Assembly (NCBI RefSeq): GCF_001565895.1
Contig: NZ_LSNE01000003.1
Coordinates: forward strand, 1,144,345 to 1,182,936
DNA length: 38,592 nucleotides
DNA from: Paraglaciecola hydrolytica
Lineage (GTDB): Bacteria; Pseudomonadota; Gammaproteobacteria; Enterobacterales; Alteromonadaceae
Reading direction: 5' to 3'
A program made the translations under genes and the position numbers. Position 1 is the first letter of the stretch. Each line of letters starts with the position of its first letter. The notes under the pieces were generated by a model. The model searched no databases. It worked only from the letters and a program-made list of their open reading frames with translations, and was not told the DNA's origin. This document shows positions 21,286-32,699 of the stretch, piece after piece.

Positions 21286-22686
21286 CTAACAACCAGCATC
21301 TTGTAAATTAATTTCCACACGATTACGTCCGTTTTGTTTGGCTATATACAATGCTTTATCCGCCGCAATTAATTCGACTTCCAGTGAAGTCTCTGCGTTA
21401 GCTAACGTTACGCTGGTACCAATACTCACCGTCAACGCAAAGCTCGTGGCAGGATCAACGTCAAACCTTAATTCGGCGATACTTTTTCTTAAACGTTCAC
21501 AAATACCCAAAGATTGTGTGTTGTCCTGCAATAAAATACAAAAAGCAAACTCTTCTCCACCATAACGCCCATACGTATCCTCTTGACGAAAGAACACGCT
21601 AAATGCATGGGCGAGTTTAACCAATACTTTGTCGCCAATATCGTGACCATAGGAGTCATTGATCTTTTTAAAATTGTCGATATCTAACAAACCCACTAAC
21701 AATACCTGATGATCCCGTTTAGCCCTGCTAATTTGCTGCTTGGCTTGCTCCAAAAAACACCTTCTATTGGGAATTTTGGTCAGTACATCATAATAGGCAA
21801 AACGATGAAGTTTTTTATTTACATCGTGTAATTCTTGGGTTCTGATGCGCACGATTTTTTCTAGATTAGACTTTAATTCTTTGAGGTTTTTATTGTGGGT
21901 TTCAAGTTGTTCGGCGCTGTATATTTCACTGGTAACATCCCGTTCAATTGCAGCAAAATGTGTCACTTCGTTGTATTTATTTCTGAGTGGAAAAATATTT
22001 AAACTCAACCAGTAGGGATGACCGGTTTTAGTGTAGTTACGAAGCTTAGCAGACACATTTTGTTTATTTTGCAACGCCTCTCTAATGCGATCTAACTCCT
22101 CTTGGTCGGTCTCTTTACCCTGCAATATTCTGGGGGTCTCGCCAATTACCTCTTCACGGCTATAACCCGTCAGTTTTTCAAAAGCATTATTCACATAAAC
22201 TATCCGTGGCCCTAAGGGTTTTAACAGATCATCGGCTTCGGTAACAATGATGATATCCTGGGCGTTATCAACAATAGATTGAAAAGAAAACAAACTTTTT
22301 TTGTCGGTAATATCGTTAAAGGTCACGACAATAAAGCTATTTTTGTCGGTTTCGGCTATCTCAGGGTACGCGTTAACCATAAACCAAGAGGGCTTGTCTT
22401 GGCTGCCGTCGATAACACCCAGTACCATATTGTAAATTGGATTTTTAAAACGTTTTACTTGGGAAACTGGAAATTGTTCGTTTAAAAGTGTATGACTTGC
22501 TTCATCAATAAAACGCCATTGTGGATCAAAAGCATCCTTCCCAATCATTTGCTCATAACTTAACCTTAATAAACGCAAAGCTGTCGGATTAGCGTACACG
22601 ACAGAGGTATCCCATTTATGGATCACTACTGCAATATTGGCGTTTTCGAGCAAGTTTTTTAAGGTTTGGTTATCAAAATTACCCAT
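21286..22686 (-). CDS. PAS-PAS-GGDEF diguanylate cyclase
   Basis: Makes c-di-GMP from two GTP. The 466-residue cytosolic protein has a first PAS domain (about 1-128), a second PAS domain with PAC motif (about 134-252), a coiled-coil linker (255-297) and a GGDEF domain (298-462). The active-site motif is GGEEF (376-380), and a product-inhibition site RxxD (RQED, 367-370) stands exactly 5 residues before it, so the enzyme should be active and feedback-inhibited. The second PAS has GETPRILQGKETD, like LOV domains, but lacks the photoactive cysteine. No membrane segments. It is divergent from an HD-GYP phosphodiesterase gene (225 nt between them), suggesting an opposing pair. Confidence 0.92.
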   Translation of the reverse strand: MGNFDNQTLKNLLENANIAVVIHKWDTSVVYANPTALRLLRLSYEQMIGKDAFDPQWRFIDEASHTLLNEQFPVSQVKRFKNPIYNMVLGVIDGSQDKPSWFMVNAYPEIAETDKNSFIVVTFNDITDKKSLFSFQSIVDNAQDIIIVTEADDLLKPLGPRIVYVNNAFEKLTGYSREEVIGETPRILQGKETDQEELDRIREALQNKQNVSAKLRNYTKTGHPYWLSLNIFPLRNKYNEVTHFAAIERDVTSEIYSAEQLETHNKNLKELKSNLEKIVRIRTQELHDVNKKLHRFAYYDVLTKIPNRRCFLEQAKQQISRAKRDHQVLLVGLLDIDNFKKINDSYGHDIGDKVLVKLAHAFSVFFRQEDTYGRYGGEEFAFCILLQDNTQSLGICERLRKSIAELRFDVDPATSFALTVSIGTSVTLANAETSLEVELIAADKALYIAKQNGRNRVEINLQDAGC

Positions 22687-22911
22687 AAGTACTTCACTTG
22701 TTTTTTATGCCACAACTGAAGGTTAGAACAAATAATTACATTTGGCAGAATTTTATCAAATCGAGCAGCTAGACTATAAATTAGCGTACTTAAGATAGGA
22801 GCCGTTTATGTTTTTGACTAAGATTAATTCTTAATAAACAAGGATAGTTATTGAATTAACCTGAGGAAAAAGCGATAAATGAGCTGAACTTTTCATTGTC
22901 GGGAGTAGATT

Positions 22912-24516
22912 GTGCACGTCAGCCATATTCTTAATGAATTTCTTAATGTTAGTGTCGCTTTATCAACAGAAAAAAACACCAGTCGACTGCTTGAGTCCAT
23001 CTTACTGTCTGCAAAAAAGTTAGCCAACGCAGATGGTGGAACTATCTATTCAGTCAATGACAAAAACGAACTGGTATTTGATACCTTATTTAATGACTCA
23101 TTAAAACTGCATATTGGTGGCTCGTCTAACAGTATCGCCAGTTTAAATTCGATTCCTATTTACATCGATGGTGAAGTTAATAAAAGCGCAATTGTGGCGC
23201 AGGCAGCGGCAACTGGTGAAGTAATTAATTTAGATGATATGGAACAGGCCAGTCAATTACACAGCCAACGTTCGAAAGCCATAGATCAACAATACAATTA
23301 TCACACCAAATCGATTTTAACGATCCCGATGAAAAATCATGAAGGGGACCTGAGTGGTGTATTGCAATTAGTTAATGCGCGTAAGGAAAATAGCGATACG
23401 GTTATCGCTTTTAGTACCGAATTATCTCGCACAGTCGAGGCGCTCGCGTCTTTGGCTTCTGTTGCTTTAACCAACCGCCAGTTAATCGATAACATGGAAG
23501 AATTATTTCAGGCATTTACCCGCCTGATAGCCAAAGCCATCGATGAAAAATCTCCTTATACTGGTGGTCATTGCCGCCGTGTTCCCGAATTAACCATGAT
23601 GATAGCAGAAGCCGTGCATCGCCATACTGAAGGCCCGATGGCGGCATTTACGATGACAGATGCCGATCGTCATGAACTTAATCTGGCGGGCTGGATCCAC
23701 GATTGTGGCAAAGTTGCCACACCTGAATACGTCATGGATAAGTCTAAAAAACTTGAAACCGTTTTTGATCGAATAGCACTGGTTGAAACCCGTTTTGAAT
23801 TGGCCAAACGTGAAGTTGAAATACATTATTTACAACAACTTGCCAACACTAACGATGCAGTAACTAAAGCCGCTTTAAAACTCGAACGGGATACACAACT
23901 ATCTCGTCTAACAAGTGATCTGAATTTTGTAGTCACTGCCAATACCGGTGGCGAGTTTATGAAACCCGAAGATCAAGCCTATTTAGTTACCATAGGCCAA
24001 TCACAGTCCGTCAACATTAATGGCAAGCCAACGGCGCTGCTCAGCGACAATGAAATCTATAACTTACGCACCGCTCGTGGCACCTTAAATCCGGAAGAAA
24101 GAACCATTATCAACCGACATATGGATATTACTGTAGAAATGCTGGATACCCTGCCTTTCCCCAAACACCTTAAACGAGTGCCAGAGTTTGCTGGCGGCCA
24201 TCATGAAAAAATGGATGGCACAGGTTACCCTAAACGCTTAAAGCGTGATGAGATGTCGATCCCAGCCCGTATCATGGCTATCGCTGACATTTTTGAAGCA
24301 TTAACAGCCGCCGATCGCCCCTACAAAGATGCTAAAAAGATCAGTGAATGTTTACGTATCATGGGATTTATGAAAAAAGATAGCCACATTGACCCTGACT
24401 TGTTTGATGTATTTATTAAAGAAAAAGTCTATCAAGAGTACGCACTTAAATTTCTTAAACCCGAGCAACTCGACGAGATTGATCTAAGTAAAATACCGGG
24501 ATTTTCGCTCAGCTAA
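22912..24516 (+). CDS. GAF-HD-GYP phosphodiesterase (predicted c-di-GMP hydrolase)
   Basis: A 534-residue protein with an N-terminal GAF domain (about 10-190) and an HD-GYP domain (about 200-480). The metal-binding motif is HDCGK (His263-Asp264), and HHEKMDGTGYP (430-440) is the complete GYP signature, so it should hydrolyse c-di-GMP. Between these blocks there is extra sequence of about 105 residues (about 285-390) with a charged helical stretch (VETRFELAKREVEIHYLQQL) that standard HD-GYP domains lack. No signal peptide or membrane segment. The start is a GTG at 22912 with GGGAG 6 nt upstream. Divergent from the diguanylate cyclase; converges on the CHASE2 cyclase, with a composite repeat between. 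Confidence 0.9.
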   Translation: MHVSHILNEFLNVSVALSTEKNTSRLLESILLSAKKLANADGGTIYSVNDKNELVFDTLFNDSLKLHIGGSSNSIASLNSIPIYIDGEVNKSAIVAQAAATGEVINLDDMEQASQLHSQRSKAIDQQYNYHTKSILTIPMKNHEGDLSGVLQLVNARKENSDTVIAFSTELSRTVEALASLASVALTNRQLIDNMEELFQAFTRLIAKAIDEKSPYTGGHCRRVPELTMMIAEAVHRHTEGPMAAFTMTDADRHELNLAGWIHDCGKVATPEYVMDKSKKLETVFDRIALVETRFELAKREVEIHYLQQLANTNDAVTKAALKLERDTQLSRLTSDLNFVVTANTGGEFMKPEDQAYLVTIGQSQSVNINGKPTALLSDNEIYNLRTARGTLNPEERTIINRHMDITVEMLDTLPFPKHLKRVPEFAGGHHEKMDGTGYPKRLKRDEMSIPARIMAIADIFEALTAADRPYKDAKKISECLRIMGFMKKDSHIDPDLFDVFIKEKVYQEYALKFLKPEQLDEIDLSKIPGFSLS

Positions 24517-24700: not shown

Positions 24701-26926
24701 TTATTTGCTGGTGTGGGTAAAACTACCATCCCAATCATCAGGGGGTGGCTCTTGCAAAAAGTGCTGAATGCGTTGCTCGTACAATGCAATCAAATGCCTA
24801 TTGCTAAAGTCAGGACTTAACGTTGATAACTCAGCCTGGGCCTGGGTAAACTGCCGTGAAAAATAACATTCCAATATGTGATTAAAATCGTTACAAGCCT
24901 TTTGTTGCGTTTGACTTAAATGCACGGCTAAAGGTGAGTAGATAGTCACAGGCGCGTCTTTTCCTTTTACTTTAACTTTATCAATTAACAAATAACTAAA
25001 GTCCTGCGCTTGTGCGCGGGTAAATTCACCAACTAAAATATCTACCCCATAAAACTTGGTTAAGCCCTCTAAACGTGAGCCCAAATTAACCGCATCACCA
25101 ATCACGGTATAACTACGGCGAAAGTCTGAGCCCATATCACCCACGTTCATTTCACCGGTATTAATACCAATGCCAATATGAGCAAGCGGTTTGTTTTGTG
25201 CCACAAAAGTCAGGTTTAAGGTTTCCAGTTCTTGCAACATACTAAAAGCCGCCGCCACCGCTTTATTGGCATGTTGCGGCTCATCTAAAGGAGCCCCCCA
25301 AAATGCCATTACCATATCACCAACATATTTATCGATAGTGCCATCACCTTCCAATATGCAGCGGGTAATAGGTGAAAAAAACTGGTTAAGCCACAGTTTG
25401 AGCTCACCGGCTGTCATGGTTTCAGAAATTGACGTAAAACCACGGATATCGCTAAACAATACCGATAGCTCTTTTTTCTCACCAGCCAAGGTCACTGACT
25501 CAGGGTTTTGCAAAATACGGTCAATATGGGCAGGAGGAACGTACTGATCAAATACCGCTTTTACCTGACGGCGTTTTTTATTTTCCAGAAAAAATCCACT
25601 GCTTATATAAAAGACAGCCAATAACAAGGTCAGTAATAAAACACTGAATAAGGGCAAATAGATAAAAAATTGATACCACAACAACAGATTCACACCAATC
25701 ACCACGACTAGCAGTAATAAGGCAAAAACACTGGTAACCAAGGGGCTACGTTCACCCAACAAACATAAACATAAGATGCCGATAACTAATAATTGCAGCA
25801 ACATTACCTCTGCCCACCAATCTGGTTGATGAGGGATAAATTGTGGTGCAATTAAGGCATCAAATACTGTGGCGTGTATTTCCACCCCAGGAAAACCCAA
25901 AGCCACTGGTGTGGCCCGTAAATCCGCTAAGCCGGTGGCAGAAGTACCCACAAAAACGACCGCCTGATCAAAACGTTGATCTTGAATTTCATCATTTAAT
26001 ATTGCGGCAGCAGAGGTATAAGGATAAGTGCGAGCTTGCCCTCGAAACGGTACAAAAATCTTCGCCTGATTATCCGTCGCAACCCAAGTATTGCCGATAC
26101 GCAGACCCTGTAAATAGGCTTGCTTAGATAGATTTTGCCAAGTAGGGATCACCTGTTCAATTAGGCTATAAACCCTGAATGCTTCCAGCGCCAAAGACGG
26201 ATAGAGCTGGCCATCAAGTTCAGCAATTAGCGCCACTCTTCTGACAAAACCATCGGCGTCTTCAAACGAGTTCATATAGCCCTGACCTGCAACTACCTCC
26301 GCCAATGATGGTAATAAACCCGCGTAACCAGAATATTGTGGAACACCAGTGATAGCCTCTATTTGGGTTTGTGCCACGCCATCAGCAGATAATACACCGA
26401 CCCGTAACGCTTGCAGGGTTTTACTGTCTTTATCTTGATGTAATAAAACCGAAAGCACAGCTTCAGTATTGGCAAGGGCGGTAACAAACTGTTGATCATA
26501 GTCAAACTGCTGCAATAGCATTTCGCGTTGATGCTGTGCCAGTTCTTGCTCTAAACTGGCTAACACCGCAACTGCTGGGTTAATTTGTGGCTCAGCAAAC
26601 AACACGTCATAACTGATCACTATGGCACCCAGCGCAGTGAGTTTTTGTGTTAGTTCAGCAAAAATCTCCCGTGACCATGGCATACGACCAATATTAGCTA
26701 GGCTGAATTCATCAATATCAACAATTTGGATATTAGTAACACTGGCGGGCCAAGGAGGCAGTCGTTTGACTTTTAGATCATAAATCAAACCGTCTATGCG
26801 CTCACGAGGGAGTTGAAAAAATGAGACTTCCAACAACTGAAAAAGCAAGACTGCCACCAACATCAGCGTGGGAACAAAGTATCTCAAGCTGCGTTTTAGT
26901 TTTTTAACCAACAAATGGGAGGGCAA
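24701..26926 (-). CDS. CHASE2-domain class III adenylate cyclase
   Basis: A 741-residue sensor cyclase. A membrane segment (about 17-33) precedes a periplasmic CHASE2 domain (about 35-365), three more membrane segments follow (about 372-392, 397-417, 421-443), then a cytosolic cyclase domain (about 485-665). Catalytic metal ligands are Asp493 (FSDIRGF) and Asp537 (DKYVGD); Lys533 and Thr607 (SYTVIGDAVN) fit ATP rather than GTP, and Asn614/Arg618 are the transition-state pair, so it should make cAMP. A helical C-terminal tail ends the protein. The start is a TTG at 26926 with GGGGGG 5 nt upstream; no ATG is available. It lies 60 nt downstream of the multidomain lipoprotein and is probably the last gene of that operon. 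CHASE2 cyclases next to FecR-domain proteins are a known association. Confidence 0.92.
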   Translation of the reverse strand: MPSHLLVKKLKRSLRYFVPTLMLVAVLLFQLLEVSFFQLPRERIDGLIYDLKVKRLPPWPASVTNIQIVDIDEFSLANIGRMPWSREIFAELTQKLTALGAIVISYDVLFAEPQINPAVAVLASLEQELAQHQREMLLQQFDYDQQFVTALANTEAVLSVLLHQDKDSKTLQALRVGVLSADGVAQTQIEAITGVPQYSGYAGLLPSLAEVVAGQGYMNSFEDADGFVRRVALIAELDGQLYPSLALEAFRVYSLIEQVIPTWQNLSKQAYLQGLRIGNTWVATDNQAKIFVPFRGQARTYPYTSAAAILNDEIQDQRFDQAVVFVGTSATGLADLRATPVALGFPGVEIHATVFDALIAPQFIPHQPDWWAEVMLLQLLVIGILCLCLLGERSPLVTSVFALLLLVVVIGVNLLLWYQFFIYLPLFSVLLLTLLLAVFYISSGFFLENKKRRQVKAVFDQYVPPAHIDRILQNPESVTLAGEKKELSVLFSDIRGFTSISETMTAGELKLWLNQFFSPITRCILEGDGTIDKYVGDMVMAFWGAPLDEPQHANKAVAAAFSMLQELETLNLTFVAQNKPLAHIGIGINTGEMNVGDMGSDFRRSYTVIGDAVNLGSRLEGLTKFYGVDILVGEFTRAQAQDFSYLLIDKVKVKGKDAPVTIYSPLAVHLSQTQQKACNDFNHILECYFSRQFTQAQAELSTLSPDFSNRHLIALYEQRIQHFLQEPPPDDWDGSFTHTSK

Positions 26927-26986
26927 TTAAGCCCCCCTTATCAGTATTGAAAGCCAACTTATAGCCTTAAAGGGGATCAACAAAGC

Positions 26987-29900
26987 TTAGTTACCTTGCC
27001 CTAAAACTTCTACCGTCAAAGTAACGGTGGCTTGGCCAACTTTGCCACTATGGTCACTCAACTGATAAACAAAACTATCTTCACCAACAAAACCACTCGT
27101 TGGTGTATAAACAAAACTACCATCCAGATTTAAGCTAAGTGTGCCGTGTTGAACAGAGCTTACAACTGTGGCTACTAAGTTAGGTAATTTTCCTTTATTA
27201 CTAAATTCCAGCTCATAAATGGGTGATGAAGAGGTATTTTTAACCAACCATAAACGATCAGAGTTAGCATTGAGTGCTAATCCACTGACACCGGAGATAC
27301 CTTGAGGTAGAGCTAAACGTCTAACGACCTTACCCTCTGGGGTATACTCGATAATGTTGTTATCAATACTGCTCACTAGATATAGGTTACCTGTCTGGCT
27401 ATTAATATCTAAATCACCATAACTGACATTAAACTGGGAGCCACTGGCGTTTAACAAAAAGCTCGATATTACTGCTCCACTGTGAGGATCAATTTCAGCC
27501 ACCAAATTACCCATGCCCTGGCCAGGCACATTGTCTTGTAACAAGAAAAACGTGCGAGTAATGGGGTTATAAGCGCCGCCAACTACATGGCTATTGCCAA
27601 ATGCCGTATTAAGCTGAGCTATTACAGTATTAGTTTTAGGATCCACCGCATAGATTTCAGTTTCAGCAGTTTCACCATTGATAATCAATAAGCTTCCCTG
27701 AGGCACCGGGGTATTAGCCAGACTGAGCGCTTCTGGTGCAATATCCATATCGGCATCATTGGCGCCCTCACCTTGCCAGTCCAAAGTGGTAAGTACCTGC
27801 CCCGCTCTGTCTAATACCGAAATGGCGGAACCAAACCCCGAATAGACATATAGGTGTTGGCGATACTCATCCACCGCTATGGCAATAGGTTGACTAAAGG
27901 TGGTAACAATTTGATTTCTGATCGCCAAACTATCACCCACAAGTGGCATATCAGGATCATTATCATTGGCTAACACTCCTGGGACACCCACAGCTAAAGC
28001 CTGATCACTAGTCGCTTGAAACTGATCGTCTAAGGCGACAGGTTCATCTGAAAAATCAATAGTCGCGTAACCTGATACGATGAAATCTAATCTATCCAGT
28101 GGCCCTGTATCACTGGAATTAGCGGTTAAGCCTACATTGCCAATACTGCACTGTTGGTTATTAGGTAAGCCCTGACATACCTGTTGGTTGGTCACATAAG
28201 CACCAAAATTACGTAAGGTAGAAAAACCAGGCACAGGATAAGAAGATTTAATCACACCACCGCTAGCAGGAAATAAACTCAATTCAAACAAGGCGTCACC
28301 TACGCTGGCAAACGTTATTTGGTTACTTCCTGCTGAAACAGAGCGAGCAACTACAGGTGAATTACCCACACCGCCATAACTCATAATAAAGGCATAAGTA
28401 CCACCTTGACCGGGTTGATTGCCGCTGCCAGCACTCTCGACATATTCACCTTCCATCGAGCACACCGTATCGATAACTTGCAAACAATCACCAATGCGAT
28501 ACAAACCAGAGCCTATGCCGTTACCAGGGGTGGTTTCACCTACACCTATATACAAAAACTCACCTTTGATGTTGAGAGAGTCACCGGTCAAATCGTTTGG
28601 CACGGCCTGCACATCAATACTTACTGTTGCAGTGTCAGTTTCGCCAGCAGGGTCGGATATTTCATAACTAAAGGTCACTAAACCTACATAACCACTAGGC
28701 GGGAAATAAGTAAAACTGCCGTCAGTACCAAGGGTAAGAGTACCCGTATTAGGTCCACTCACTGGCTGAGTATTAACCGTAATAACATCCCCATTAGGAT
28801 CTTCGTCATTGACTAACAAACCGCTGCTTTTTTTGATATCCAGGCCGGTATTTTGATATATCGGAAAACTGTCATCATTAGCAACAGGTGGCAGGTTATT
28901 AATGGATATAACGATTGATACATTGCCCGTGGCAGTGCCCCCGTTACCATCTGAGACCTCATACTCCACGGTATCTTGCCCCACATAACCAGTGTCAGGG
29001 GTGTAGGTCAGACTATTGTCATTTTCTATCACCACTGTGCCATTTTGCGCACTGGCCTGCGACACTGACAAACTATCACCGTCGGGATCCTGATCATTAC
29101 TCAGCACATCAATATTAACTGGGGTATCAAGTAACGTAGCAGCGGAATCATCACTGACCACCGGATCATCGTTAACAGGCGTGACCTGCACAATTATCTG
29201 GGCACTATCGGTTAAACCTAAGGTGTCGCGAATGACATAATCAATTACCACCTGACCGTTAAAATTAGCTAGCGGTATATAATCAATATTTACACCATTG
29301 AGGCTCGCCTGACCTGAACTCGCTAAAGCCGAGACCAATGAAATGTTATCGCCTTCAGGATCACTATCATTATCTAAAGGAGCAAAGCTGGCGCTGTCGT
29401 CTTCCAACATTGTCTCTGCATCATCAACCGCTTGAGGTGGGTTATTGGGTATAGTACTGTTGGGTGCAATCACCAATCCTTGGCTAAAAGCACTCTCGCC
29501 ACTGCCATCCACTCCGACCAACACTACATAATAAGTATGTGCAGCATTAAGATTAGTGAATGAAACCGAGGTACCACTTAAGGCTAATCGCGCTTGACCT
29601 TCAGACAGTTGCAAATAATTGTGTTGCCCTACTCCACTTTGCCCTGCAAGGTATAAGTTGTAACGCAGCAATTGGGAATTTGCATTCCAACTCAAATCAA
29701 TAGTGCTGCCATCCGCACTGCGGGTATATTGCAAACCACTTAACTGCTGGGGCTGCCAATCAACTGTCAAACTCGCAACTTGCTGTTGAGTATCGGTTTG
29801 GTCTGTTACCCACAATCCCAATACTAATGGCCCAGCGTTGGCCACATAAGCGCCAGGGTAAATACCGCTATACATGGCCGAGTGTTCATTGCCTGAGCAA

Positions 29901-30181
29901 CTCGTATTTGAACTACACAATACATGGCGAGATGATCCCGCATTAAAGCTGATTGCTACGGACTTTAAGCCGTCCAAATCACTGACTTTTATATCCAGTA
30001 ATAAATTACCTGCAACCACTTCATTATTAATAGGCGCTAAAAAACCACCCACGCTATCACTGGTTGATTTAGCTAAACGAGCATTACTAATTTCTGCGGG
30101 CGACTCACTACTCCCCCCACAGGCCAATAAACTTAAGGCAAAGATACAAGGTACTATCTTATGTAGCAGCATGTTCATCAT
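26987..30181 (-). CDS. Multidomain lipoprotein with cadherin-like repeats and an inserted beta-propeller-like region
   Basis: A 1064-residue exported protein. Lipobox LLAC puts Cys21 at the mature N-terminus, with Gly at +2, so outer-membrane sorting. Then: Ig-like region (about 45-142), fibronectin III-like (146-240), three cadherin-like/Big_9 domains (248-335, 339-427, 431-525; NDxDPxGD motifs suggest calcium binding), an unassigned region with four cysteines (527-713), and a fourth cadherin-like domain split into 714-754 and 1001-1058 by about 245 residues of beta-propeller-like repeats (AIAVDEYRQHLYVYSGFGSA, DLDINSQTGNLYLVSS, GLALNANSDRLWLV). Three in-frame ATGs (30181, 30178, 30172) follow AAGGAG; spacing favours 30178. 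Only 5 nt separate it from the FecR gene upstream. Probably an adhesin or surface protein; function not known. Confidence 0.85.
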   Translation of the reverse strand: MMNMLLHKIVPCIFALSLLACGGSSESPAEISNARLAKSTSDSVGGFLAPINNEVVAGNLLLDIKVSDLDGLKSVAISFNAGSSRHVLCSSNTSCSGNEHSAMYSGIYPGAYVANAGPLVLGLWVTDQTDTQQQVASLTVDWQPQQLSGLQYTRSADGSTIDLSWNANSQLLRYNLYLAGQSGVGQHNYLQLSEGQARLALSGTSVSFTNLNAAHTYYVVLVGVDGSGESAFSQGLVIAPNSTIPNNPPQAVDDAETMLEDDSASFAPLDNDSDPEGDNISLVSALASSGQASLNGVNIDYIPLANFNGQVVIDYVIRDTLGLTDSAQIIVQVTPVNDDPVVSDDSAATLLDTPVNIDVLSNDQDPDGDSLSVSQASAQNGTVVIENDNSLTYTPDTGYVGQDTVEYEVSDGNGGTATGNVSIVISINNLPPVANDDSFPIYQNTGLDIKKSSGLLVNDEDPNGDVITVNTQPVSGPNTGTLTLGTDGSFTYFPPSGYVGLVTFSYEISDPAGETDTATVSIDVQAVPNDLTGDSLNIKGEFLYIGVGETTPGNGIGSGLYRIGDCLQVIDTVCSMEGEYVESAGSGNQPGQGGTYAFIMSYGGVGNSPVVARSVSAGSNQITFASVGDALFELSLFPASGGVIKSSYPVPGFSTLRNFGAYVTNQQVCQGLPNNQQCSIGNVGLTANSSDTGPLDRLDFIVSGYATIDFSDEPVALDDQFQATSDQALAVGVPGVLANDNDPDMPLVGDSLAIRNQIVTTFSQPIAIAVDEYRQHLYVYSGFGSAISVLDRAGQVLTTLDWQGEGANDADMDIAPEALSLANTPVPQGSLLIINGETAETEIYAVDPKTNTVIAQLNTAFGNSHVVGGAYNPITRTFFLLQDNVPGQGMGNLVAEIDPHSGAVISSFLLNASGSQFNVSYGDLDINSQTGNLYLVSSIDNNIIEYTPEGKVVRRLALPQGISGVSGLALNANSDRLWLVKNTSSSPIYELEFSNKGKLPNLVATVVSSVQHGTLSLNLDGSFVYTPTSGFVGEDSFVYQLSDHSGKVGQATVTLTVEVLGQGN

Positions 30182-30186
30182 TCTCC

Positions 30187-31389
30187 TTAAGGTTTAAGCT
30201 GGCGTAAAACAAAAGAACCGGACGCTTCAGTATTGCTCGCGCTGCTGTCATATAATGCAATATTACCCAGCACGCCTTGAGCTTGATCAATTAACAACGC
30301 TTCAATTGAACCACTGGCGAGATTGTTACCGTGGGACGCAAAGTTAACTGACAAATCTAAAACACTGTCTCGAACGATACCGTCAAAGGCGGCAAACCAT
30401 TCCCCCCCCGCATCCGTAAAAGACAAATTACCTGTGGGCACTCGTGCGCTATCAAAATTGATCGACATAGATATATTAAAATCATTAATCTCCCCCAAAC
30501 TGCTACTAACAGAGTGTTGGTCAAGTTGATCAAACACCGCCAACCCTTGACGACTCACATCAGCGGGTAACCACGTTGCGGCGAGTCGATCATTATCGAT
30601 ATATCTTTGACTATTAAGTTTGCTCAGATAAATGCTGTCATCAGCTTGTTTGCTTGAAAATGCAGGCAATGCAGCCGCAAAACCCGCGTCAGCTAATTCA
30701 ATAGGTACTTGCTCGTATAGATCACGACTATAACCACTGGAAAATGCCAAGGGAGTTTGTAATAAAAATTCAACCGAGCCATCTGCTCTGACGATGGCAA
30801 ACTTGTGAGGTAACAGTGGTCCTAAAGAAAAACTCTGACCTAAGGTACCTGCCGTTACTTTAATATCGATAATGCCTTTCCAACCAGCTAAATATAAATC
30901 ACCTTCTATTAACTCAGCTTCATAATGGGTACCACGTACACCGATACTGGCCACTGGAGTGACTAACTTGTAATTATCCGGTGTTTGCTGCAAGGCACCA
31001 GTCACGGTTTTTAATCCACCTTTTAACAAAGACATACTGATCGTGCCTTGTTCAGTTTGTGCATCAAACTCATAACTAACAATCGACAGTTCGCTTGAGG
31101 CCTGCATCGACAGCAGTCCGCCATCGATCATACGTAACTGGGTAGCACTTTGTTGTCCAGTGGTGACCAAATCGGTGTTATAAACGGCTGAACGTCTGGC
31201 CAAAGCACGCTTTTGTTGATCTGTCAGCGCCACTACCTCACCTTGCGCCATAATCGCCTTGCCAGCGGTGGTTGACTGCGTTTGCCCCAAAGCACCAAAA
31301 CTGACCAACAAGCCTAGGCTAGCCCAAGTTAGTAATGAACTAAAACCAAATGCAGACTGCATTAAAACTGATAACGAGCGCCAATCCAT
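30187..31389 (-). CDS. Exported FecR-domain protein with C-terminal small-barrel-like domain
   Basis: A 400-residue exported protein. A signal peptide (about 1-35, ending FGALGQ) leads to a FecR domain (about 43-176) with the typical LVTPVASIGVRGTHYEAEL and LKGGLKTVTG segments. There is no anti-sigma N-terminal part, so this is the periplasmic/cell-surface type of FecR protein, not the FecI regulator. The last 100 residues (about 300-396) alternate glycine-rich turns and strands (PTGNLSFTDAGGEWFAAFDG, LDLSVNFASHGNNLASGSI, ASGSFVLRQL), resembling the small beta-barrels found at the end of TbpB-like proteins; this is inference. Start 31389 has CAGGAG 7 nt upstream and overlaps the preceding gene by 28 nt, showing translational coupling. 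Confidence 0.85.
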   Translation of the reverse strand: MDWRSLSVLMQSAFGFSSLLTWASLGLLVSFGALGQTQSTTAGKAIMAQGEVVALTDQQKRALARRSAVYNTDLVTTGQQSATQLRMIDGGLLSMQASSELSIVSYEFDAQTEQGTISMSLLKGGLKTVTGALQQTPDNYKLVTPVASIGVRGTHYEAELIEGDLYLAGWKGIIDIKVTAGTLGQSFSLGPLLPHKFAIVRADGSVEFLLQTPLAFSSGYSRDLYEQVPIELADAGFAAALPAFSSKQADDSIYLSKLNSQRYIDNDRLAATWLPADVSRQGLAVFDQLDQHSVSSSLGEINDFNISMSINFDSARVPTGNLSFTDAGGEWFAAFDGIVRDSVLDLSVNFASHGNNLASGSIEALLIDQAQGVLGNIALYDSSASNTEASGSFVLRQLKP

Positions 31390-32699
31390 AAATTGCTCCT
31401 GTTGTAATCATATAAAGCCAAGTTGCTGCGGTTATCCACCACACTCATTTGTGCCGTTAACAGCCAATCGGCGCGCCACTGATAATGTAAGTCCACAACC
31501 AGTTGCATAAATTTGTCTTCACGAGTTTGTGCAAACAGCGGATGATCTTCCGCGTATTCAGCTTTGAGGTAATCGGCGCTCAGTTTATAGTACCAACGAG
31601 AGGAGAGTTGCTGGGTAAAACTATAACCTGCCCCCAATAACTGCCGCGAATTAAAGTCCATCTGGCTTTCCTGACTTTGTTCATCACCTAGTTTAAGGCT
31701 AAAACGACTTAAGCCAGCAAAAGTTGGCGTTTCAAACCACAGGTTAAACCACAGCTGATCGCGGCTTAATTCAGTAAAATCTGCATAATCCAAACGACCA
31801 AGGGTTAGCTCGCCACCAATGGATGATTGACTAAAAACAGCTTGTCCAGCCTCAATAATTAAACCGTAATAATCTAAAAAACTTTCACCATCGAGCCATA
31901 AAGGGCGATAAAACACACGAGTACCCACATCTTTACCGGCCAATTTGCCGGTATAACCGACAATGGCGTTAAAGTTTGATTTGGACTGAGCCAACTCTTC
32001 GGAATAGCCGGTGTAACTGGCGCCAAGTGAGGTATACCAACGGGATGTTTGAGTAAGCGGGGCCACATAACTAAACTGCGCATTGAGATCATAAAAACTA
32101 CTACTGATTGCCTGACTTTGCTCAAACAATTTAACTTGCCCGAGTAAAGGCACGGTAATAAATTCGTTTTCTATGCCGTTATTAGGGTTCGAATCCTGCC
32201 CCAAGCCAAGTTGCAAAGTATTGTGCCAACCTGAGTTATCGTTACTTTGACGACGTTCGATGGCCCTTATGTTTTGTTCAACTACGTTTTGCATTTCAGG
32301 CGACATTTTTTGCAAAGCAAGATGGTTAAATTCCACCTCTGCGGCGGCTAAATTACCCAGTTCATAATAACAAGTGGCCAGCGCAAATCTGGCAGAAACT
32401 GTTTGTGGCTGAACCTGCACCACCCGCTCTAAAGCATAGACCGCAAGATTACAATTATCTGTTGCTTTAGCGGCTAAACCAAAAGCGAGATCAAAATCTG
32501 CTTCGCCTTCTAGTTCATTTTGCTTAGCCTCAGCTAATACATAAGCCTCAGAAATCTGCTGCTTATTTAATAATTCAATGATTTGTTGTGGAATGTCCGA
32601 AGAGGCAAAAGACTTAGCTGTAAGTAACAAACCTACAGCGAATAAACAGCATGAAGTTAAGCATAAACGGTAGTGGTGAGAGCTTGGTTGGCGTTCCAT
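31362..32699 (-). CDS. TPR protein with C-terminal outer-membrane beta-barrel (Slam/DUF560-like)
   Basis: A 445-residue exported protein and first gene of the operon. Signal peptide 1-33 (AKSFA/SS), then TPR-like helices (about 37-150, including ALATCYYELGNLAAAEVEFN), then from about residue 158 a series of amphipathic strands (LQLGLGQDSNPNNGIE, WYTSLGASYTGYSEE and so on) ending in NLWIGARYQF with a C-terminal Phe, the signal for outer-membrane assembly. Short periplasmic TPRs followed by a 14-strand-size barrel of about 290 residues is the plan of Slam/type XI secretion outer-membrane proteins (DUF560). It lies directly upstream of the FecR protein and a large lipoprotein, possible cargo. 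Ribosome binding site weak (GGGTTGAAAAC). Barrel location is firm; secretion function is inferred. Confidence 0.75.
   Translation of the reverse strand: MERQPSSHHYRLCLTSCCLFAVGLLLTAKSFASSDIPQQIIELLNKQQISEAYVLAEAKQNELEGEADFDLAFGLAAKATDNCNLAVYALERVVQVQPQTVSARFALATCYYELGNLAAAEVEFNHLALQKMSPEMQNVVEQNIRAIERRQSNDNSGWHNTLQLGLGQDSNPNNGIENEFITVPLLGQVKLFEQSQAISSSFYDLNAQFSYVAPLTQTSRWYTSLGASYTGYSEELAQSKSNFNAIVGYTGKLAGKDVGTRVFYRPLWLDGESFLDYYGLIIEAGQAVFSQSSIGGELTLGRLDYADFTELSRDQLWFNLWFETPTFAGLSRFSLKLGDEQSQESQMDFNSRQLLGAGYSFTQQLSSRWYYKLSADYLKAEYAEDHPLFAQTREDKFMQLVVDLHYQWRADWLLTAQMSVVDNRSNLALYDYNRSNLWIGARYQF

What the first reader, a model, noticed from the sequence alone, without database searches (positions are those of the whole stretch)
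24701..32699. Candidate surface-lipoprotein secretion and cAMP signalling operon: TPR-barrel / FecR / cadherin lipoprotein / CHASE2 cyclase
Four genes on one strand are packed with a 28-nt overlap, a 5-nt gap and a 60-nt gap. They encode, in order, a TPR plus outer-membrane barrel protein with Slam/type XI secretion architecture, an exported FecR-domain protein, a large lipoprotein (Cys21, Gly at +2) and an adenylate cyclase with a periplasmic CHASE2 sensor. FecR-CHASE2 neighbours are known; a DUF560-like barrel and a cadherin-like lipoprotein in the same unit suggest that the barrel displays the lipoprotein or FecR protein on the surface, and that CHASE2 senses its arrival or loss and signals by cAMP.
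Basis: partly seen in the sequence, partly recalled or inferred. Interest (0 to 1): 0.75.

Follow-up and report, generated by a model that had tools for sequence, protein, structure and literature searches.

The report
Slam-like barrel wired to cAMP signalling
A conserved marine-bacterial operon pairs a secretion-type outer-membrane barrel with a FecR sensor protein, a large surface-type lipoprotein and a cAMP-making enzyme, probably a relay that turns an event at the cell surface into a cAMP signal.

Summary
The four-gene operon is real and conserved. In the best 80 of 101 loci found with the FecR protein, the barrel gene lies directly upstream in 80 of 80, the lipoprotein directly downstream in 69, and a CHASE2 cyclase is present in 62 of 69 loci with at least 9 kb after FecR. 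The barrel model has N-terminal TPRs and 14 strands. Its profile matches Slam/T11SS barrels (99.6%, E 1.4e-23) better than BBP2_2 (96.3%, 1.6e-9), BcsC (1.3%) or porins (6.4%). The FecR protein ends in eight strands; fold hits include TbpB and NHBA, but sequence support is thin. The likelier T11SS-type client is thus the FecR protein, not the lipoprotein, which 8 loci lack. Nearest tested precedent: NsrA-CyaK of Sinorhizobium meliloti, FecR, TPR and barrel in one protein beside a CHASE2 cyclase; its barrel is not detectably related. A similar cluster is in print for Campylobacterota. My searches found no paper linking T11SS barrels to FecR or CHASE2. Best reading: a trans-envelope cAMP relay on a Slam-family barrel. 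Export and signal are untested.

The parts
31362..32699 (-). BAR: outer-membrane protein, N-terminal TPR + 14-strand barrel, Slam/SlipAM-like
   Evidence: ORF; Pfam TPR; model pLDDT 94; hhalign of the barrel profile to Slam 99.6%
32238..32594 (-). TPR helices of BAR (residues 36-154)
31368..32231 (-). 14-strand barrel of BAR (residues 157-444)
30187..31389 (-). FECR: exported protein, FecR domain + flexible linker + C-terminal 8-strand domain
   Evidence: ORF; FecR; model pLDDT 83
30763..31269 (-). FecR domain region (model residues 41-209)
   Evidence: best fold hit PupR cell-surface-signalling domain, (aligned range not shown, taken to be this part)
30199..30543 (-). 8-strand C-terminal domain (residues 283-397)
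   Evidence: fold hits TbpB and NHBA C-terminal domain, (aligned range not shown); 1 of 61 family members (L103) matches PF01298
26987..30181 (-). LIPO: large predicted lipoprotein; conserved N-terminal domain, Big_9/cadherin-like repeats and, in close relatives only, a middle domain and a propeller-like region
30119..30130 (-). lipobox LLAC, Cys21, followed by Gly
   Evidence: sequence; conservation
24701..26926 (-). CHASE2 class III adenylate/guanylate cyclase
   Evidence: the only CHASE2 match in the genome
25757..26842 (-). CHASE2 sensor (residues 29-390)
24944..25480 (-). cyclase catalytic domain (residues 483-661) with FSDIRGF at 491, DKYVGD at 532, VIGDAVNLGSR at 608
   Evidence: the meaning of the motifs is recalled

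Best explanation
A trans-envelope cAMP relay built on a Slam/T11SS-family barrel. BAR sits in the outer membrane with its TPR domain in the periplasm. FECR is exported from the cytoplasm, its FecR domain docks on BAR's TPR face, and its flexibly linked C-terminal TbpB-like domain engages the BAR pore as a T11SS client would. The state of that complex (ligand bound outside, or C-terminal domain exported or held) is read by the CHASE2 domain of the inner-membrane cyclase through the FecR domain, and this sets cAMP. LIPO is an accessory outer-membrane lipoprotein with a conserved N-terminal domain, probably an adhesive or stalk-like partner or target. In 40 of the 52 relatives whose run holds LIPO and then the cyclase, an MBL-fold enzyme, possibly a cAMP phosphodiesterase, lies between them. 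Shown by computation: gene order, domain make-up, barrel homology, predicted strand counts. Inferred: all contacts, export, the signal, the cAMP output.
For: Barrel directly upstream of FecR in 80 of 80 loci; CHASE2 present in 62 of 69 loci with at least 9 kb after FecR (in one, L117, upstream and divergent). BAR barrel profile against 5 Slam-family barrels, each with a TbpB_B_D-type gene beside it: 99.6%, E 1.4e-23 over 280 columns; controls BBP2_2 96.3% (1.6e-9), BcsC 1.3%, Porin_4 6.4%. 34 of 66 BAR family members match SlipAM at E <=0.5, best 2e-10. FECR model: best fold hit PupR 6ovk; TbpB (4qq1, 5kkx) and NHBA C-terminal domain (6cuj) also hit. L103 passes PF01298 at 27.5 bits against 26. 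In S. meliloti FecR + TPR + a C-terminal part that PMC7529298 calls a beta-barrel are one protein whose gene overlaps cyaK, and NsrA and CyaK are needed for signal perception there (passages). Campylobacterota cluster of CHASE2 cyclase, phosphodiesterase, FecR OMP and TPR protein (PMC9239204, passages).
Against: No contact, export or cAMP change can be tested here. FECR's own C-terminal profile does not match TbpB_B_D (0.6%); a wider set reaches 34-47%; PF01298 is matched by only 1 of 61 FECR family members at E <=0.5 and by 0 of 10 FecR partners of Slam-like barrels elsewhere. The TbpB fold hits have rmsd near 18 A over the whole model. BAR members also match BBP2_2 (32 of 66) and DUF2860 (23 of 66). 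The NsrA barrel is not related to BAR (0.1%). Outside the 80 loci a CHASE2 gene lies within the fetched stretch of only 5 of 16 barrel-FecR loci. Some FecR partners (249, 250, 255, 262 aa) have no room for a cargo domain.
Confidence: 0.6

Rival explanations
1. One reading: BAR is a true T11SS translocon that displays LIPO (or FECR) on the surface, and CHASE2 senses its arrival or loss as an assembly checkpoint.
For: Slam homology; LIPO is a predicted lipoprotein in most copies: of 69, 58 by pattern (2 of them, L040 and L045, doubtful), 7 more by eye, 4 without; its N-terminal domain is found in 69 of 70 loci that hold LIPO; FECR has a cargo-like fold hit.
Against: Pfam finds no cargo-type domain in the window LIPO, whose C-terminus is repeat-like; LIPO was not modelled. 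LIPO is absent from 7 Catenovulum/Gayadomonas-type loci and from L117 while BAR-FECR stay; 4 copies look SPI-type.
Confidence: 0.2
2. BAR is a plain T11SS for FECR: FECR is secreted to the surface or medium as an effector or binding protein, and the CHASE2 cyclase is only a co-regulated neighbour.
For: The barrel-FecR pair is more widespread than its link to CHASE2: FecR is next to the SlipAM hit in 15 of 24 genomes, CHASE2 within the stretch in 5 of 16 such loci.
Against: FecR-CHASE2 neighbourhood is common without the barrel: FecR in 15 of 40 CHASE2 loci, a BAR relative in 6 of 40; some FecR partners with no room for a cargo domain keep the barrel.
Confidence: 0.15
3. BAR is a polysaccharide or small-molecule channel of the BBP2_2/EpsL or BcsC/PgaA kind, and the operon regulates exopolysaccharide or uptake.
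For: BBP2_2 profile 96.3%; BBP2_2 hits in 32 of 66 and DUF2860 in 23 of 66 BAR members; EpsL model hits in relatives; top Foldseek hits are BcsC, then FadL and PelB, PgaA among the first six.
Against: The Slam match is much stronger (1.4e-23 against 1.6e-9); 14 strands; BcsC profile 1.3%; no polysaccharide gene among the five window neighbours scanned, neighbours in other loci were not scanned for this.
Confidence: 0.05

Closest known systems
NsrA-CyaK (Sinorhizobium meliloti), with Clr
   Same: FecR domain, TPRs and a C-terminal outer-membrane barrel, gene overlapping that of a CHASE2 adenylate cyclase; an outer-membrane protein needed for cAMP signalling
   Different: one fused protein; barrel unrelated by profile (0.1%); no Big/cadherin lipoprotein annotated beside it in the region fetched
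CHASE2 cyclase / FecR OMP / TPR / phosphodiesterase cluster of Campylobacterota (PMC9239204)
   Same: same set of functions in one cluster
   Different: there the FecR protein is described as the outer-membrane protein; no Slam link or lipoprotein in the passages read; I did not fetch its sequences
Slam / type XI secretion system (PF04575, DUF560)
   Same: TPR + 14-strand barrel, profile homology; partner with a predicted 8-strand C-terminal domain
   Different: partner is a FecR protein beside a cyclase; secretion not shown; window protein itself below Pfam detection
FecA-FecR / PupB-PupR cell-surface signalling
   Same: outer-membrane barrel to FecR-type domain logic (recalled); FECR fold hit to PupR
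   Different: no TonB receptor or sigma factor in the operon; output is a cyclase
Burkholderia BiofilmReg operon (PMC5192318, passages)
   Same: FecR protein with a CHASE2 receptor
   Different: histidine kinase output, LysM-FecR protein, no barrel described

Membership tests
T11SS / Slam OMP | C-terminal DUF560/SlipAM barrel | tested here: met
   by family profile 99.6%, E 1.4e-23; window sequence alone 96.6%. Direct PF04575 hit for the window protein absent; 34 of 66 family members match at E <=0.5, how many pass the cut-off was not shown
T11SS / Slam OMP | 14 strands with N-terminal TPR | tested here: met
   14 long strands and TPR helices, pLDDT 94; closure of the barrel was not measured
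T11SS / Slam OMP | neighbouring client with C-terminal 8-strand barrel (TbpBBD-like) | tested here: inconclusive
   FECR has 8 C-terminal strands and TbpB/NHBA fold hits; sequence profile 0.6%, wider set 34-47%; PF01298 in 1 of 61 members and 0 of 10 wider partners
T11SS / Slam OMP | moves a protein across the outer membrane | not testable with these tools
   needs experiment
NsrA-CyaK type relay | FecR + TPR + OM barrel beside a CHASE2 cyclase | tested here: met
   split in two proteins here
NsrA-CyaK type relay | homologous barrel | tested here: not met
   hhalign 0.1%
NsrA-CyaK type relay | barrel needed for cyclase-dependent cAMP | not testable with these tools
   needs experiment
FecI-FecR-FecA signalling | ECF sigma factor and TonB receptor | tested here: not met
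   neither is among the four operon genes and the five neighbouring genes scanned

The most novel reading that the evidence does not exclude
A branch of the Slam/T11SS superfamily has been turned into a receptor: its client, a FecR-TbpB-barrel hybrid, is threaded through the barrel so that the C-terminal domain is outside while the FecR domain stays in the periplasm and gates a CHASE2 adenylate cyclase, making protein export itself the signal for cAMP. In an evenly drawn sample of 229 Gammaproteobacteria genomes the FecR-paired kind (15 of 24 genomes with a SlipAM hit) outnumbers genomes with a TbpB_B_D hit (4 of 24).
Probability: 0.3. Interest if true: 0.85.

Novelty: new variant of a known kind. 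Interest (0 to 1): 0.62.

Why it matters
What CHASE2 domains recognise was stated as unknown in 2016 (PMC5192318, passage); in the passages I read the NsrA case is the only one with a named outside signal. T11SS: only seven OMPs, all of cluster 1, were verified as of 2025 (abstract passage of PMC12282271), and neither T11SS paper searched mentions FecR in its main text. A conserved Slam-barrel/FecR/CHASE2 unit gives both questions a small, genetically testable system, and suggests that secretion barrels and signalling receptors share parts.

Tried and rejected
Direct Pfam test of BAR for DUF560: negative for the window protein. FECR C-terminus against a TbpB_B_D profile: 0.6%; PF01298 in 0 of 10 wider FecR partners and 1 of 61 family members; so that claim rests on strand count, fold hits, a wider profile (34-47%) and one relative. 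NsrA as orthologue: rejected by barrel comparison, kept as a parallel architecture. Rfam at gathering scores: no match in the window. Promoter scan: 11 sites against 21.5 expected, uninformative; a terminator-like stem at 26918-26937 straddles the TTG start given for the cyclase, but 13 such sites were found against 9.8 expected. Plasmid search with BAR: no match; with FECR: 4 records, partial. PDB sequence search: BAR's good matches are TPR proteins, FECR gave one chance-level row. A guessed place on S. meliloti 1021 pSymB missed cyaK. H13 (L118) turned out to be another FecR-CHASE2 pair, not NsrA.

What was dropped before counting: the deep alignments took 65 of 77 BAR and 60 of 74 FECR ORFs that passed length and completeness filters in the 80 loci, near-duplicates removed; the first alignments took the window plus 12 (FECR) or 14 (BAR) copies out of 17 loci. 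The CHASE2 survey used 40 loci, one per genome, from the top-scoring rows among 154 of 274 genomes with a hit, so it is not random, and a few stretches end at a contig end. One of the five Slam yardsticks (L222) is cut short by a frame change and three of the five come from one genome.
Full report
Observation. The four genes, strand, overlap and gaps are as described. Pfam finds TPR in the first protein, FecR in the second, Big_9/cadherin-like repeats in the third, CHASE2 plus a class III cyclase in the fourth. The cyclase has FSDIRGF, DKYVGD and VIGDAVNLGSR motifs, which I recall as elements of an active class III cyclase. It is the only CHASE2 match found in this genome.

Conservation. A BAR match was found in 19 of 98 genomes, the window's own included; of the 21 other genomes of the same genus one (G018) has it over nearly the full length, with one stop inside, and one has only a short TPR stretch. 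A search with the FECR alignment gave 101 relatives, of which the best 80 loci were kept, mostly Alteromonadales. BAR lies directly upstream of FECR in 80 of 80, median gap 8 nt, often overlapping; LIPO directly follows in 69, an MBL-fold gene in 9, a short unassigned ORF in 1, a contig end in 1. CHASE2 is present in 62 of 69 loci with at least 9 kb after FECR, in L117 upstream and divergent; of the 7 without, five carry LIPO genes so long that little or no room is left, and two (Psychrosphaera L049, L051) lack it in reach. The other 11 loci are too short and show none. In 40 of 52 loci whose run holds LIPO and then CHASE2 an MBL-fold gene lies between; in 12, as in the window, it does not. 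FECR's C-terminal domain is found in 77 of 80; the other three are short or cut. LIPO is absent from L057, L063, L077, L098, L101, L104, L109 and L117; L070 and L105 are contig ends; in L092 a LIPO-like gene lies further on.

The barrel. AlphaFold2 gives pLDDT 94, pTM 0.75, with TPR helices 36-154 and 14 long strands 157-444. A SlipAM (PF04575) search of 229 Gammaproteobacteria genomes hit 24; in 15 of these 24 a hit is beside a FecR-domain gene (G186). TbpB_B_D (PF01298) was found in 4 of 229 genomes, all four among the 24. Five SlipAM proteins with a TbpB_B_D-type gene beside them and no FecR gene in the flanks (three from one genome, one cut short) served as the Slam profile. The BAR barrel profile matches it at 99.6%, E 1.4e-23 over 280 columns; the window barrel alone at 96.6%. 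Controls: BBP2_2 96.3% at 1.6e-9 (window barrel alone 39%), BcsC 1.3%, Porin_4 6.4%; Slam against BBP2_2 85%. So Slam is the nearest relative tested, with BBP2_2/EpsL-type barrels as a neighbouring group; 34 of 66 BAR family members match SlipAM, 33 TPR_Slam, 32 BBP2_2 and 23 DUF2860 at E <=0.5. The Foldseek list starts with BcsC, and FadL, PelB, CymA and PgaA follow; no entry named Slam is in the 50 rows shown.

The FecR protein. The model has a signal helix, a FecR beta domain, a disordered linker (221-268 below pLDDT 50) and eight C-terminal strands. Foldseek hits are PupR (6ovk, 9.9e-6, rmsd 4.0), FecR-type anti-sigma proteins, TbpB (4qq1 2.2e-4; C-lobe 5kkx 3.6e-4) and the NHBA C-terminal domain (6cuj, 5.4e-3, TM by target 0.56, rmsd 4.3). 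The tool does not show aligned ranges; I assign PupR to the first part and NHBA to the second by length and fold, and the TbpB rows, with rmsd near 18 A, run over the whole model. By sequence the window family does not match a TbpB_B_D profile (0.6%). A wider set of FecR C-termini reaches 34 to 47%, aligned over the VDF and G-x-F-x-G-x-x-A motifs, with porin, BBP2_2 and Slam controls at 0.1% or less. PF01298 is matched by 1 of 61 FECR family members (L103, 27.5 bits, cut-off 26) and by 0 of 10 wider FecR partners. Paracoccus and Shinella FecR proteins, next to a TPR-barrel gene and a CHASE2 cyclase, match it below cut-off (2.3e-4, 0.019), and their C-termini match the TbpB_B_D profile at 90% over 46 columns. 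Some FecR partners of Slam-like barrels are only about 250 aa, so the client-like domain is not essential to the pair.

Known systems. In an S. meliloti pSymB record the gene overlapping cyaK by one base on its upstream side codes for a 1190-aa protein with FecR (66-160), TPRs (422-588) and a C-terminal part. I take it to be NsrA: its place beside cyaK is recalled from the title paper, which is not held, and its size fits the beta-barrel at residues 600-1200 given in PMC7529298 (passages). PMC9239204 (passages) reports CHASE2 cyclases clustered with a phosphodiesterase, a FecR-domain OMP and a TPR protein in Campylobacterota. PMC5192318 (passages) and PMC5498481 (passages) give other FecR-CHASE2 links. 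In my survey FecR lies near 15 of 40 and a BAR relative near 6 of 40 CHASE2 loci. The main texts of PMC12282271 and PMC8406197 have no occurrence of 'FecR' or 'adenylate' (supplements not searched). 'Type XI secretion' with 'FecR' gave 0 papers, 'FecR' with 'CHASE2' 3. Two broader searches showed 10 of 18 and 10 of 37 papers; in the first no listed paper holds DUF560, and in the second no title or abstract start listed joins these parts to T11SS.

Mechanism. I commit to a trans-envelope relay (0.6): BAR and FECR form the sensor, CHASE2 the output, LIPO an accessory. NsrA shows FecR, TPR and barrel in one protein working toward a CHASE2 cyclase; here the same three parts are split over two adjacent genes, which argues that BAR and FECR act together. 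Whether FECR's C-terminal domain is exported is open (novel case, 0.3). LIPO's conserved N-terminal domain (69 of 70 loci) next to the lipid anchor, with a repeat stalk of variable length, fits an adhesin-like partner; its middle and propeller-like regions are found in only 9 and 8 loci. The MBL protein matches a cyclic-nucleotide phosphodiesterase model at 35.7 bits, far under its cut-off of 400, and RNase Z models score higher, so that role is a guess; the window's genome has a 45% identical homologue elsewhere.

Noticed in passing
window 21286-24516: A PAS-GGDEF gene and a GAF/HD-GYP gene, both c-di-GMP-type, lie just beyond the cyclase gene, the latter convergent with it.
   Followed up: no
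L021 / L039 (Paraglaciecola MAG): The only same-genus near-full-length relative has BAR interrupted by an in-frame stop and LIPO split in two ORFs; decay or assembly error.
   Followed up: no
G000 C7:200571-201206 (L126, L271): A second SlipAM-like barrel (306-aa ORF) in the same genome, with no FecR-domain gene found in the 16-kb stretch.
   Followed up: partly
L027:15274-16116 and relatives; G000 C6:197250-198020 (L272): MBL-fold gene between LIPO and CHASE2 in 40 of 52 such relatives but not in the window; a homologue sits elsewhere in the window's genome.
   Followed up: partly
L049, L051, L061, L096, L099: An MBL-fold gene lies directly upstream of BAR; in L049 and L051 a second one follows LIPO and no CHASE2 gene is in reach.
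   Followed up: no
L119, L121: In Shinella and Ensifer plasmids FecR-CHASE2 cyclase genes lie beside NHLP bacteriocin export transporters and cyclic-nucleotide-binding proteins.
   Followed up: no
FECR proteins L031:11265-12845 and L034:11162-12748: Their linkers are long and rich in D, E and S repeats, as a flexible tether would be.
   Followed up: no
L254:3019-6624: A 1201-aa FecR-domain protein beside a BAR-FecR pair; by eye its C-terminus looks like a small outer-membrane barrel.
   Followed up: no
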